A program made the position numbers and the translations under genes. The notes under the pieces are model-generated. The model had not been told where the DNA came from. It saw only the letters and a program-made list of their open reading frames with translations, and ran no database searches. A stretch of 64,000 bases of DNA, taken from the NCBI GenBank assembly GCA_028751875.1, contig CM054140.1, positions 32,799,908 through 32,863,907 on the forward strand. Reading direction: 5' to 3'. Positions 7,201 to 13,200 of this stretch are shown piece after piece. The stretch is from Rapana venosa. Lineage: Eukaryota; Mollusca; Gastropoda; Neogastropoda; Muricidae. Numbering within the stretch: the stretch's first letter is position 1; each line of letters opens with the position of its first letter.

Positions 7201-10200
7201 GTGCAACCTTTTCTTTTTTTTCAGCTTGTTTTCATGGAGCAGAAGGGATGAGTCTCTTTTAAGGTTATGAGCAGACTTGTGTTTAAATGAATATGCACCG
7301 TAGCCATTTTGCCTGGTTATGATTCAGGAGCGGTAATGCCCGCTATCATGGGCATTATCTGTCAGTACGTTATCCAAAGTGAGCGTTCGGCCTTTAGCAG
7401 CCTGATCATGTCAGGTCACTACTTGGGGTAAGTGTGAAGGGGGTCTGAGTGCCTGGGGTTGACCGCGGGCCAGTCCCCGCTGTGGGCAGACATTGCTACT
7501 AGAGTTCTCTCATGATGGCTAGGAACTGTATTATTTGTTTTCCTCCTTCCCTCTTAGGCTAAGCAGCTGTTTGTTGGTTGGCTTGCTTGACCTTTTTTTT
7601 TGTTTTTTTAAAGTTTTCTTTCTGTCTCTCTATTTTTTTCTGGTTAAAAAAAGTAATGGCTTTTTTCCCTTTAATTATAAATATATTTTTGCTTCATTTT
7701 GTATACACAAAGGTGTTTTGTTTTGTCTTCTTCTCTGTTGTTTAGGGTCTCTTGTCTTTGTGTCTTCTCAGGGATTTTCTGCATAATTCTCATAGATGTT
7801 TCCTGTCTGTCTGTCTGTCTGTCCTGTCTGTCTGTCTGTCTGTCTCTCTCTCTCTCTCTCTCCTCTCTCTCTCTCTCTCTCTCTCTCTCTTCTCTCTCTC
7901 TCTCTCTCTCTCTCTCTCTCTTTCCTTCCCCCCCCCCCCCAACCATTCTTTTAATTAATATGTGGGCATCTAAATACCTTTTTTTTCCAACATACACCCA
8001 CACTTCATCTTCTTGTTGCCATGTTCATTACTTTGGTTTCATGTTTTTAGGACTTTAAAAACAACAAAGTTTCAGCTTTGAGCAGTATATTGTGGAAGCA
8101 AATAATAAGTTCCTCAGTCATCTGCACTACTAACATACCAGGCTGGCTAACATCTAACAGAAAATATTATTTTTTTCTACTAATCTCTAGATGAGGGGTT
8201 TGAGATGACAAATTGGCTGATTTCTAAGATGTGATTGATTACCATCTGATTTTTTTCTTTTCTTTTTTACAGTTTAGAGATTTCTTTGTACATGTACCAT
8301 GGTCTGGGGATGTTTTTTTTTGGGGGGGGGGGGGGGGGGGGGGGGGGATAGGCATTTTTTATATGGATATGTCATAATAATGTTGTAGTAGTTTTACTTT
8401 TTTTAAAAATTATTCATATGTAAAGATAATGAGAATCTATCTTAAGTTACTAATGGCATATATGTGCAATATTCTCTTTCAGTTCTCTGGCAAAAGCAAA
8501 ACTGTGTAAAGTGCTTAACATATTTGTTTGGTGTAGTCTCACCATACAAAAGAATAGTTACTAAAAAGGCAAAACACTTTGCTTTTATTTCAAAACAAAC
8601 AACAACAATTAATAAAAATGAATAAGGAGAAACTGGCCATTTGAATTAGTATCATATTTCAAGCTGCTGTTTATAAACTTTTATTTCGAATCAGCCTAAT
8701 TATGAATAAATTCCTGTCACTTAGCATGAGTAACAGGATAAAACTGTCTTTGTATTGATTGCTCATCATGTGTCATCATTTGGGCAGTGGGGATGAAAGC
8801 CTATGGCACATGAGTTACAAGAAACAAATAAACTATACTGTTGAACTGTCGGGACAAAGAGCACATTAGACAGAAACATTTTTGTTTTGTTTTGTTACAA
8901 GACCGGCATTTGTCATTGGCTATGATTACCACACTGATAGGAAGAAACATAATTGGCTTGATATGAAGAACTACTCTTTTCAGAAACCTTAACTGTTAGT
9001 TTGCAATAATGTTACCCAGGCAGTTGTGATTATGCCACTGTCTTCAGTCTATGGACAAAATAAACATAAACAGAGAGAGAGAAAAACTGTCAGGAGAGTT
9101 TGTTGATTTAATGCATTCTTTTTTCTCTCATCCATTTTCTTCAGAAGGGAGCTCTATCACATTGTTTTCTCTATTTTCTTCCTGTGTTTGCTTTATTCGG
9201 TGATTGACTCATGAACTATAAAGGGGTTTTCATCTTATTTAGCAATGCACCTGTGAATGGATGGTTGCACAGTTTTGCTCATGCTTTCTCATTGAGTTGC
9301 TTGAAATCCGAGTAATATTTTAATGCTTTGAAAGAGTGCTTATTTTGGTATGTTCATACTTGTGGGCTTCATCAGAAGGTAAGTTTTTAGATAGTGACTG
9401 AGCTCTCAGGTTTGCTAGAAAAGAGAATAGAAGTGTACCATTAATTTCATAGTTTTGGGTCCGGGGAGTGAAGAAATATCTTAGTTTCTGTACATTGTGC
9501 AAGTCTGCTGTCTTTATAAGTCTGTATGTATCTGCTGTCTTTATAAGTCTGTATGTATGGAAGTGTGTTGTAGTGTATCAGGCTATGGTGACTGAGTTTA
9601 TCGTAGACTTACGTTTCCTTTTTTTTATTGCCAGAAGTGTTTATATTGCAGTTTGAACTGTTTGTACTAATACAGCTGTTGAGGGGGTAATATGTCATCA
9701 ATTGGCACAAAAACCTAAGAGCAAACCAGAACAAGAAAAAAACAACAACAACAAAAGCAAAATGAGGAAAACAGTTCAAATAGAAATTGCAACAATATGG
9801 CAGGTTTTAAGAAATGTTTTGTAAACTGTTCTGTCCACCAGATCATTTAGTAGTATAATTTTGTATTTGTTAGACAACAAGTCTCGGTTACTTTCAAAAA
9901 CTTCCCCTAAATCTCGACTCTACTGTTAATTTGTGGTGATGTGAAAGTAGTATTTCTAGCTAGATGTAGATCATTCTAACTACTTGTTTTAGGTGAAAAA
10001 TTCCCTTCTGGGTGACCAAGACTATTCTGTCAGTTCATGATATCAGAGAAGTGACTCATTTGGTGAAATCTGAACTACTCTTAAAGCTTGCGATATTAGG
10101 AAATCATTCTTCTGTACCAAGTAGATTTCAGCCCCAATCTGCAGTCAGTGGGGCTATAAACAAGATTGGATACCAATTAGATTTAAATGTACAGTTCGAC

Positions 10201-13200
10201 ATGGGTTAAGATCTGTCTTCTGTAGGCTTTACAGCTTAAAAAAGAACAAGAACCCACAGCAGTGCTTGCAGCTGAACCAAGTAGGTTGAACTCTTTGTCT
10301 TGTTGGCTCTACTGCTCTGTAAGGAACCAGAATTCACAGCAGTACTTGCGCCTGTACCAGTCATGGTAAGTACATTTCTTAAACAACTTTTAGGTTGAAA
10401 ACCATGAGCAGTTGTTAAGCACAGCTTGATGTGACTGTGTCCAGACTCTGGCGTGTAAAATTAGGAAAAATGCCATCTCTGATCCATTGGCTGTTTTCTG
10501 CTGCTTTTATCTTTTGATCAAACACCTCTCTAAAGGGGACCCAGAAAAGGAATGACTGAATGAATAATTGTGGCAAAGGCAGTCACCCAGTACTTTTCTT
10601 TCACTAATTCTTTGCTCCTCAGGTTTTCACTACCCGGGTTTGACCAGTATCATATCACGCAAAGTTCACGAGCAGGAGCGCTCTCTGACCTATAGTATTG
10701 TTGCGGCAGGCTCTCACTGTGGGTAAGCTCCAACTCTTTCTGTTTTGTGTCCACCCAAAGGTCTCGTGTGTGGTGTTTAAATGAGCTGTAGTGCAGAGTG
10801 GGGTGATGCATGATTCCTAGATAAGAACATGCAGTTTGCATGAAGTGAATGTGAAATGTTTCTTTTGTTCAAGCTGTTGTTGTTGGAAGTTCGGTTGCTT
10901 TTGGTAGTTTCTCACTGATTAATTCCTTGCTCAGAGATCATTTACGAGGGCAGGGAGAAAATATCTTAACCAAATGCCTGAAGAAAACTCTACCTCAGTT
11001 CACTGACCCTGACTTGGCCCTTCTTCAATAGACCATGTTCCTCAGCCAGTTTTAAAACTGATATGAAAGAAAGGGACGTTGTTCCAAATCTGATTTTCCC
11101 CCTCTTGTTTCATCTCAAATCTATCCCTGCCTAAAATGGCCGAAATCCCATCACCTTGCCAAAGTGTGTAATCTTGGTGTGTGTGTGTGTGAGCATGTAT
11201 GTACATTTGAATTTGTTAACTCTGTTAATTATTATTGGTGGTATGTATGGGTGTGTTGAATGCAAGCGCTTTTTCTTTTTGCAAGATATTGCGCTATATA
11301 AATTCCATTTATTATTATTATTATAAAAGAATTTGATGAGGGGAATAGTGAAGGTGGAGGGGATAGAGGTTTTTGGTGGGAGTGAGGGAGGGAGGGTAGA
11401 ATATGTTTTCCTCTGTCACTTTTAGGAAACAGTCACAGCTTGAACTGATCATTTGAATGGCGTTTTTAGTTTGTTATTTGAGTGTTGGACAAAATTAGCA
11501 AAGGAAATCTTTGAAAGTTATTCCAAAATTTGATGGAGAATACATTTTTCTTTCAATTCATTGCTGTTGCTAGTTTTAAACACATTTTTATGCCCTTTTG
11601 TTTGTTTGGGGGTTTTCTTTTTTTTTTTAAGGGGGGGGGGGGGGATGGTAACTAGTCTGTAGGCATCAAATTAGTAGAAGCATGTGCAGAAAAGAGACAG
11701 CGCATAGCGTTTAACAGGAAGGTTCTTTATAGGTTTGATTTTGAAATTTTCCTCTCCACTACTTCTTTCTCTAACTGCTTCACTTTCACCAAGTGCTGCT
11801 GTCAGTAACTAACAACTTGTATACGTAAATTGTTACCTTAATGTATCATTACCAAACTGATAATTGAGATAAAAATTTGTTTAAAACCTTGCCAGATTTC
11901 TTGCATACCATTCTCATTTTTAAGGTGAAACATCTTTTTAAATTTCTTATCAGATGATGCCCATTTTGTCTGTCATATCTAAGAATCATCAGGTTTTAAA
12001 TTCTTGGTGTGTATGTGCAGTTTTGTACAAGAAAGTATTTAGACATATTTTCGGAGTTTCAGATATTCATTTTACTGTTAGAATAGAACATATTACCATG
12101 AGTAGGTGTTACAATGTGTGCCCTCCTCTTTATTGCAGTGTGTGTGTGTGTGTGTGTGTGTGTGTGTGTGTGTGTGTGTGTGTGTGTGTGTGTGTGTGTG
12201 TGTTTTCCAAATTATGCACATGTATGCACTTTTCACTCTTTTGTATCTAAGACACAATGCTTATCTGTGTTTACTTATTTCACATACATACACATGTATT
12301 CTGCACTTCTCTTTTTTTTTAAATCTAAAAGTTGTGTTTGCTTGCAAAATATGTTTGTTCTATTTGCAGGCAGTTTACTTCTTTTCTTTTTCCCTTTTTT
12401 TGGGGGTGGGGGTGGGGGGGGGGGGTGAGTTCCTTGGCAAGAGCTCCAAGGTTCACCAATGGTGAGAATTTTTGTATGCAACCATTTTTTTCCTCTATGA
12501 AGGTTGTCACATTCTGACTTTAAGGATGATAACTAAACATGCCACCAGTGTAGATGCATTTTTGAAATTTTGTCATCCATTCCTACCAGCATTCAATGGT
12601 CTATTCTTCCAAAAGACACAACAGGGTTTTAATATATGTGAAAGATGTTTTGCATGCATGGGACCTTGGTTTATAGTCTCATCTGAAGGACTTTCAGGGG
12701 AGTGGAGTCGGTACTGATGATGTTGACTCCAGGGGAAAAAAATCCCCTTGAACAGATGCCTCAGTGGTGGCTCGAACCTGGATGATCAGATCACGAGCTC
12801 AATGCTCTAGCCATTGGGCTGTCCCCCACTCAGTTTGACTCCTTTTAACTCCCAGAGGAGCCATTGGGGCATTTACTGAAAGTTTCAAGCAGAGCGTGAG
12901 GGGCAAGTTGAACCTGGCAGAGCCCATCCCTCTCCAGGTCAGACATTGCATGCTGGGTGTGTTCATGTCATTTATACCACCAGGTATCGCTGGCCTGCTT
13001 GCTCTTCTGCATAAGATCAAACACTTTTTAAAAATTCTGTGTACAAAATGGTAACCAAGTATTCACACACAGGACTTTGTGTTAGTCGCATCCATATTAA
13101 TATTTTCATGCTGTTCACTGTTTTAAAGAAAAAACAAAATCATGGTAATCAATTTTCAGTCATATTGTGAATTTTTTCTCACCTTTTCTATCAACTGTCT

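What the first reader, a model, noticed from the sequence alone, without database searches (positions are those of the whole stretch)
7328..10722. Mutually exclusive exon pair swapping TM4-TM5 of a VNUT-like transporter
Two exons (7328-7427, 10623-10722) encode the same 34-residue position. Both are 100 nt, both enter in phase 1 and leave in phase 2, both have intact splice sites and no stops, and they share 11 of 34 residues including the ERS motif. The downstream one resembles vertebrate SLC17A9; the upstream one is strongly diverged. The swapped segment follows the functionally critical Arg of TM4, so the two isoforms could differ in substrate choice, anion dependence or sorting. I know of no described exon switch of this kind in a vesicular nucleotide transporter, though I cannot search for one.
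Basis: partly seen in the sequence, partly recalled or inferred. Interest (0 to 1): 0.88.

Follow-up and report, generated by a model that had tools for sequence, protein, structure and literature searches.

The report
Ancient exon switch in mollusc nucleotide transporter
A snail gene for a transporter thought to load ATP into vesicles carries two interchangeable versions of one small exon, both also found in clams and mussels; the choice swaps residues at the predicted substrate pocket, so one gene probably makes two differently tuned transporters.

Summary
Exons A (7328-7427) and B (10623-10722) are both 100 nt, open, AG/GT-bounded and phase-matched in an SLC17A9-like gene. Using both or neither breaks the frame. 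Exon A is not a stray copy: its signature occurs in 5 of 118 retrieved proteins, all molluscan: Batillaria, Potamilus, Crassostrea virginica ('isoform X2'), Mytilus edulis and Mya. The six A segments form one clade (98/93 over 34 columns). Protein models from Mya and M. edulis read A, then a piece of B, inside otherwise B-type proteins. The pair thus probably predates the bivalve-gastropod split. Aligned to sialin, the swap covers Thr178, Phe179, Tyr203 and Gln207. The Phe179 equivalent changes from Tyr/Phe to Met, the Gln207 equivalent from mostly His to Tyr. Sialin Q207A still transports glutamate but not NAAG (PMC11116495). Best reading: a mutually exclusive exon switch that retunes the substrate pocket, analogous to NKCC2 exon 4. 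The exon pair is near certain; expression is inferred (no RNA data); the functional difference is a hypothesis. No paper describing it showed in the listings of my searches.

The parts
4162..4288 (+). first exon of the gene found in the window (N-terminal part of the transporter; ends in phase 0). The exon with the start codon was not found
   Evidence: tblastn with P0001-P0005 and P0020; spliced ORF
5437..5656 (+). constitutive exon before the switch; ends in phase 1 shortly after the TM4 Arg (RVMLGICQ-G)
   Evidence: tblastn 100% identical to Nucella P0001 over 74 aa; AG/GT borders
7328..7427 (+). alternative exon A, 34-residue position [34 protein letters not shown] (the two border codons are split)
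   Evidence: open, AG/GT, phase-matched; A-type relatives in 5 molluscs; chance control
10623..10722 (+). alternative exon B, 34-residue position [34 protein letters not shown], the ordinary SLC17A9-like form
   Evidence: 94% identical to the Nucella, Babylonia and Littorina segments; AG/GT
15213..15286 (+). constitutive exon after the switch ([11 protein letters not shown]...)
   Evidence: tblastn; spliced ORF
16797..16965 (+). constitutive coding exon
17861..17957 (+). constitutive coding exon
24964..25051 (+). constitutive coding exon
26312..26346 (+). constitutive coding exon, 35 nt
26908..27079 (+). constitutive coding exon
27821..27850 (+). constitutive coding exon, 30 nt
28846..28985 (+). 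last coding exon, ending in the stop codon TGA at 28983-28985

Best explanation
A mollusc SLC17A9-like (VNUT-like) gene carries an ancient pair of mutually exclusive exons, A then B. Each encodes the same 34-residue piece: the cytosolic end of TM4, the TM4-TM5 loop and the first half of TM5. Shown: both exons are intact; exactly one keeps the frame; the A class is a conserved clade found in gastropods and bivalves; protein models from two bivalves read A followed by a piece of B. Inferred: both isoforms are made, and messages with both exons or neither are removed by nonsense-mediated decay. Hypothesis: exon B gives the standard vesicular nucleotide transporter. Exon A rebuilds the cytosol-facing substrate pocket and gate on the same scaffold. 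It puts Met where sialin has Phe179 and Tyr where sialin has Gln207, and replaces the loop Arg/Lys-Lys by Gln/His plus an aromatic. The result would be a transporter with altered affinity or substrate choice in particular cells.
For: Anatomy and frame. Chance control. Conservation: 5 of 118 proteins carry the A signature, all five from named molluscs. The six A segments form a clade with 98/93 support against 26 B and outgroup segments that I picked. Met4 and Phe/Tyr14 are in 6 of 6 A and 0 of 26 others; Tyr32 is in 6 of 6 A and 1 of 26 others. In the wider set of 73 non-A segments, position 4 is never Met (the pattern allowed Tyr, Phe or Val only), position 14 is aromatic (Trp) once and position 32 is Tyr 7 times. 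Same gene: Mya P0022 and P0072 share identical runs of 116, 26 and 154 aa, and P0072 reads a full A segment followed by B from its ninth residue; M. edulis P0036 reads A, filler, then B from its 22nd residue, and matches M. galloprovincialis P0027 (B) exactly for 87 and 279 aa. Selection on exon A: 12 of 13 differences between window A and Batillaria A are conservative; neutral simulation gives this without a stop in 0.03%. Structure: models of an A protein (P0003, pLDDT 89.1) and a B protein (P0004, 90.8) have matching helix boundaries here; the best PDB matches of the A model are sialin and VGLUT2 (the B model was not searched). Pocket mapping: position n = sialin 175+n; Thr178, Phe179, Tyr203 and Gln207 are at the cytosol-open cavity. 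These four columns differ more between A and B than the average column (0.81 against 0.48, P 0.042, tested after I knew the mapping).
Against: No RNA reads were seen, and no relatives' genomic DNA. Among retrieved gastropod proteins that cover the segment only Batillaria shows A; Nucella, Babylonia, Littorina, Haliotis, Aplysia and others show B, though clusters at 90% identity can hide an A isoform. Two searches aimed at the A segment returned only their own query. The window's A is only 21 of 34 identical to Batillaria A, while its B is 32 of 34 to Littorina B; the species differ, but A appears to evolve faster. B alone has the ordinary motif, so A could be a non-transporting form. Seven of 73 non-A segments also have Tyr32, so that residue alone does not mark A. 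The tree rests on 34 columns. Sialin is a distant template (27-28% identity).
Confidence: 0.72

Rival explanations
1. The exon pair is real and spliced, but its effect is on regulation (cytosolic gate kinetics, chloride or voltage dependence, trafficking), or exon A makes a non-transporting or dominant-negative form; substrate choice does not change.
For: A-specific changes also fall in the TM4-TM5 loop (positions 12-14) and near the cytosolic gate residues Arg195, Ser196 and Lys197 of sialin. In NKCC2 a tandem product with two alternative exons is dominant-negative (PMC7818487 section 13).
Against: Changes at the Phe179 and Gln207 positions are consistent in all six A segments, and framework residues Gly1, Pro5, Gly30 and Gly34 are kept in all six, which argues for a working protein with a different pocket.
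Confidence: 0.3
2. Exon A is a decaying duplicate in this species that is spliced rarely or not at all.
For: It looks less conserved than B. Its acceptor has a lower pyrimidine fraction than B's (0.65 against 0.76), but 5 of the 9 constitutive exons measured are as low or lower, so this says little.
Against: Open frame and intact sites; GC of 0.52 against 0.36 in the introns around it; 12 of 13 conservative changes; A signature shared with bivalves.
Confidence: 0.07
3. A and B belong to different tandem paralogues, and the window is a collapsed or mixed locus.
For: Molluscs have further SLC17A9-like proteins, for example P0039 (54%) and P0078 (56%).
Against: tblastn with six relatives found one set of the other exons in the window; identical flanks in the Mya and Mytilus pairs. 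Genomic paralogues could not be searched.
Confidence: 0.02

Closest known systems
NKCC2 (SLC12A1) exons 4B/4A/4F
   Same: One of several similar, consecutive exons is used; each encodes a 32-residue piece, one membrane helix plus part of a loop, of a transporter (PMC7818487 section 13). The variants differ in functional traits and ion constants (passages and reference titles seen).
   Different: Another transporter family; three exons; a vertebrate kidney gene; a product with 4A and 4F together stays in frame, whereas here both or neither breaks the frame.
SLC17A9 / VNUT (vesicular nucleotide transporter)
   Different: No alternative exon at this place turned up in the listings of my searches. 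A 2021 Aplysia paper says VNUT has been functionally characterised only in humans and mice (PMC7943599, passages).
Sialin (SLC17A5) and VGLUT2 (SLC17A6)
   Different: 27-28% identity; position 4 is Phe in sialin and Tyr in VGLUT2 but Met in exon A.

Membership tests
Mutually exclusive exon pair | Equal phase, one position in the protein, homologous sequence, intact splice sites | tested here: met
Mutually exclusive exon pair | Inclusion of both or of neither disrupts the product | tested here: met
   A+B reaches a stop after 172 residues of the partial ORF, neither after 118
Mutually exclusive exon pair | Both exons conserved between species | tested here: met
   A in 5 other molluscs, B-like segments in many, at protein level only
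Mutually exclusive exon pair | Transcripts with either exon, not both | not testable with these tools
   No RNA data. The label isoform X2 on an A-type C. virginica protein is indirect
SLC17A9 (VNUT) | Nearest named relatives are SLC17A9 proteins | tested here: met
   85% to Nucella and Babylonia with exon A in the query; Babylonia is named SLC17A9-like
SLC17A9 (VNUT) | MFS fold, nearest solved relatives in SLC17 | tested here: met
   (on relatives P0003 and P0004)
SLC17A9 (VNUT) | Transports ATP or other nucleotides into vesicles | not testable with these tools
   Needs an assay; not shown for the Aplysia gene (PMC7943599)

The most novel reading that the evidence does not exclude
One gene makes two vesicular transporters with different cargo: exon B loads nucleotides, exon A loads a different anion (for example another nucleotide or an acidic amino acid), because the exon choice swaps the Phe179/Gln207-equivalent pocket residues. 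It would be a splice-controlled choice of vesicle cargo older than the bivalve-gastropod split.
Probability: 0.35. Interest if true: 0.88.

Novelty: new member of a known kind. Interest (0 to 1): 0.68.

Why it matters
If both isoforms are made, evolution has kept two versions of a substrate-pocket segment on one transporter scaffold since before bivalves and gastropods split. That is a natural segment-swap experiment for SLC17 selectivity, in a transporter for which no solved structure appeared in my PDB searches. It also suggests that mollusc cells could choose vesicle cargo, or its affinity, by splicing, which junction counts and liposome assays can test directly.

Tried and rejected
Tandem-paralogue or mis-assembly origin: disfavoured, because tblastn found one set of constitutive exons in the window and relatives have both exons in one protein model. 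Chance open stretch: rejected. Third exon copy: none recognised in the window. Upstream exon start at 5401: replaced by 5437 after tblastn; both acceptors are in frame, so 5401 could be a minor alternative. Exclusion because the exons lie too close to splice together: unlikely, they are 3,195 nt apart. Exclusion by RNA pairing: the 25 longest of 263 inverted repeats between 5600 and 15300 pair a CA repeat at 6469-6580 with TG repeats at 14357-14482 or 12138-12207, so I drew nothing from them; the other 238 were not shown. TGCATG motifs were listed but not tested against chance. A weak acceptor as the cause of regulated use: not supported, 5 of 9 constitutive exons are as low or lower than A in pyrimidine (one search measured two of them one base off). 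NCBIfam gave no model above its curated cut-off for 4 proteins. Region searches for the A segment (24 and 71 candidates) returned only the query. The fold search with the A model listed 50 entries and no VNUT; absence there is not evidence. Searching relatives' DNA was not possible with the collections held. Paper searches on ZIP14 and NKCC2 were for background; only the NKCC2 review was opened. A search on bivalves and mutually exclusive splicing listed 19 papers, none about this gene by title or abstract start.

Full report
What was checked. The window holds an SLC17A9-like gene on the + strand. Eleven exon positions from 4162 to the stop codon at 28983-28985 splice into a 416-residue open frame with either alternative exon, with AG/GT at all internal borders. 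The exon with the start codon was not found in the window. Exon A (7328-7427) and exon B (10623-10722) are each 100 nt; each begins after one base of a split Gly codon and leaves two bases of the next. Joining both gives a stop after 172 residues of the partial frame; joining neither gives one after 118. To keep the frame, exactly one exon must be used. A and B share 11 of 34 residues.

Is exon A real? Its GC is 0.52, like the five other exons measured (0.41-0.61) and unlike the introns around it (0.36). Of 93 open, phase-correct AG-100nt-GT windows on both strands, only A and B resemble the family. A scores 74.2 against A-type segments of five other species, whereas the maximum on that profile is 2.2 in 60 simulated windows with 2,683 open candidates. 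Thirteen residues differ from Batillaria A and 12 of them are conservative (binomial P 0.0023). In neutral simulations run to 13 changes, 53% stay free of stops and 0.03% do so with at least 12 conservative changes.

Relatives. A database search with the A isoform returned 118 proteins. The A signature (Met4, aromatic 14, Tyr32) is in 5 of 118: Batillaria attramentaria P0003, Potamilus streckersoni P0013, Crassostrea virginica 'isoform X2' P0020, Mytilus edulis P0036 and Mya arenaria P0072. Another 73 have a readable non-A segment, of which 1 has an aromatic (Trp) at 14 and 7 have Tyr32; the remaining 40 were not matched by the pattern. A tree of the six A segments and 26 B or outgroup segments that I picked puts all A in one clade, support 98/93, on only 34 columns. 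Non-molluscs in the list (annelids, brachiopod, nemertean, insects, tunicate, fish, sea cucumber) showed no A, but annotation often keeps one isoform and the database keeps one protein per 90% cluster. Two searches limited to the A segment found only the query.

Same gene, same order. Mya P0022 (B) and P0072 share identical runs of 116, 26 and 154 residues and list the same longest contig length. P0072 reads a full A segment and then B from its ninth residue. M. edulis P0036 equals M. galloprovincialis P0027 (B, 'isoform X2') for 87 residues up to the switch and 279 after it, and reads A, some filler, then B from its 22nd residue. These look like gene predictions that tried to use both exons. 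Together with the window, A precedes B in all three cases where order can be read. I saw protein models only, not the DNA of these relatives.

How splicing might be controlled. Nothing in the sequence settles this. The exons are 3.2 kb apart, so crowding cannot enforce exclusion. Exon A's acceptor is less pyrimidine-rich than B's (0.65 against 0.76), but 5 of 9 constitutive exons are as low or lower. Decay of frame-broken messages is the simplest inferred safeguard.

Comparison with what is known. NKCC2 exons 4B/4A/4F are the closest parallel in kind: alternative single exons of 32 residues covering one helix and part of a loop (PMC7818487, section 13 and passages). Full-text searches combining SLC17A9, vesicular nucleotide transporter, VNUT or SLC17 with mutually exclusive, alternative splicing, mollus or invertebrate gave no paper that describes this switch by title or abstract start (with all hits listed; with 10 of 38 listed). 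Two of the listed papers were opened by passages: PMC7943599 and PMC2824716, which does not hold the words splice, exon or mollus. A five-term search for mutually exclusive exons in solute carriers gave 0 papers. The library is open-access only, so a description elsewhere is not excluded. The A isoform already sits in databases as an unremarked sequence, so what would be new is its recognition.

Verdict. The exon pair is real and old. Expression of both is likely but unseen. A retuned substrate pocket is the leading hypothesis; a regulatory or non-transporting isoform is the main rival.

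Noticed in passing
window 21739-24399 and 53322-56107: Two stretches with similar broken frames that look like copies of one non-LTR retrotransposon (similar by eye). A piece of the second matches Pfam reverse transcriptase (E 3.3e-27); the piece of the first that I tested matched nothing. The first lies in the transporter gene's intron between 17957 and 24964.
   Followed up: partly
window 56599-56712, + strand: Exon-like stretch matching Pfam LTV (low temperature viability protein, E 1.3e-9), probably an LTV1-like gene downstream of the transporter.
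   Followed up: partly
window 61924-63510: Long degenerate tandem array with units of about 31-38 and 66 bases among others, overlapping long frames on the - strand that match nothing in the one case tested.
   Followed up: no
window 6469-6580, 12138-12207 and 14357-14482: A CA repeat before exon A and TG repeats after exon B could pair across both exons; possibly only microsatellites.
   Followed up: no
window 5401-5436: A second in-frame acceptor would add 12 residues ([12 protein letters not shown]) before the 5437 exon; none of the 6 relatives shows it.
   Followed up: partly
proteins P0039, P0041, P0078: More distant SLC17A9-like proteins (52-56% identity; Pomacea, unnamed, Littorina) with B-like segments suggest a second paralogue in gastropods.
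   Followed up: no
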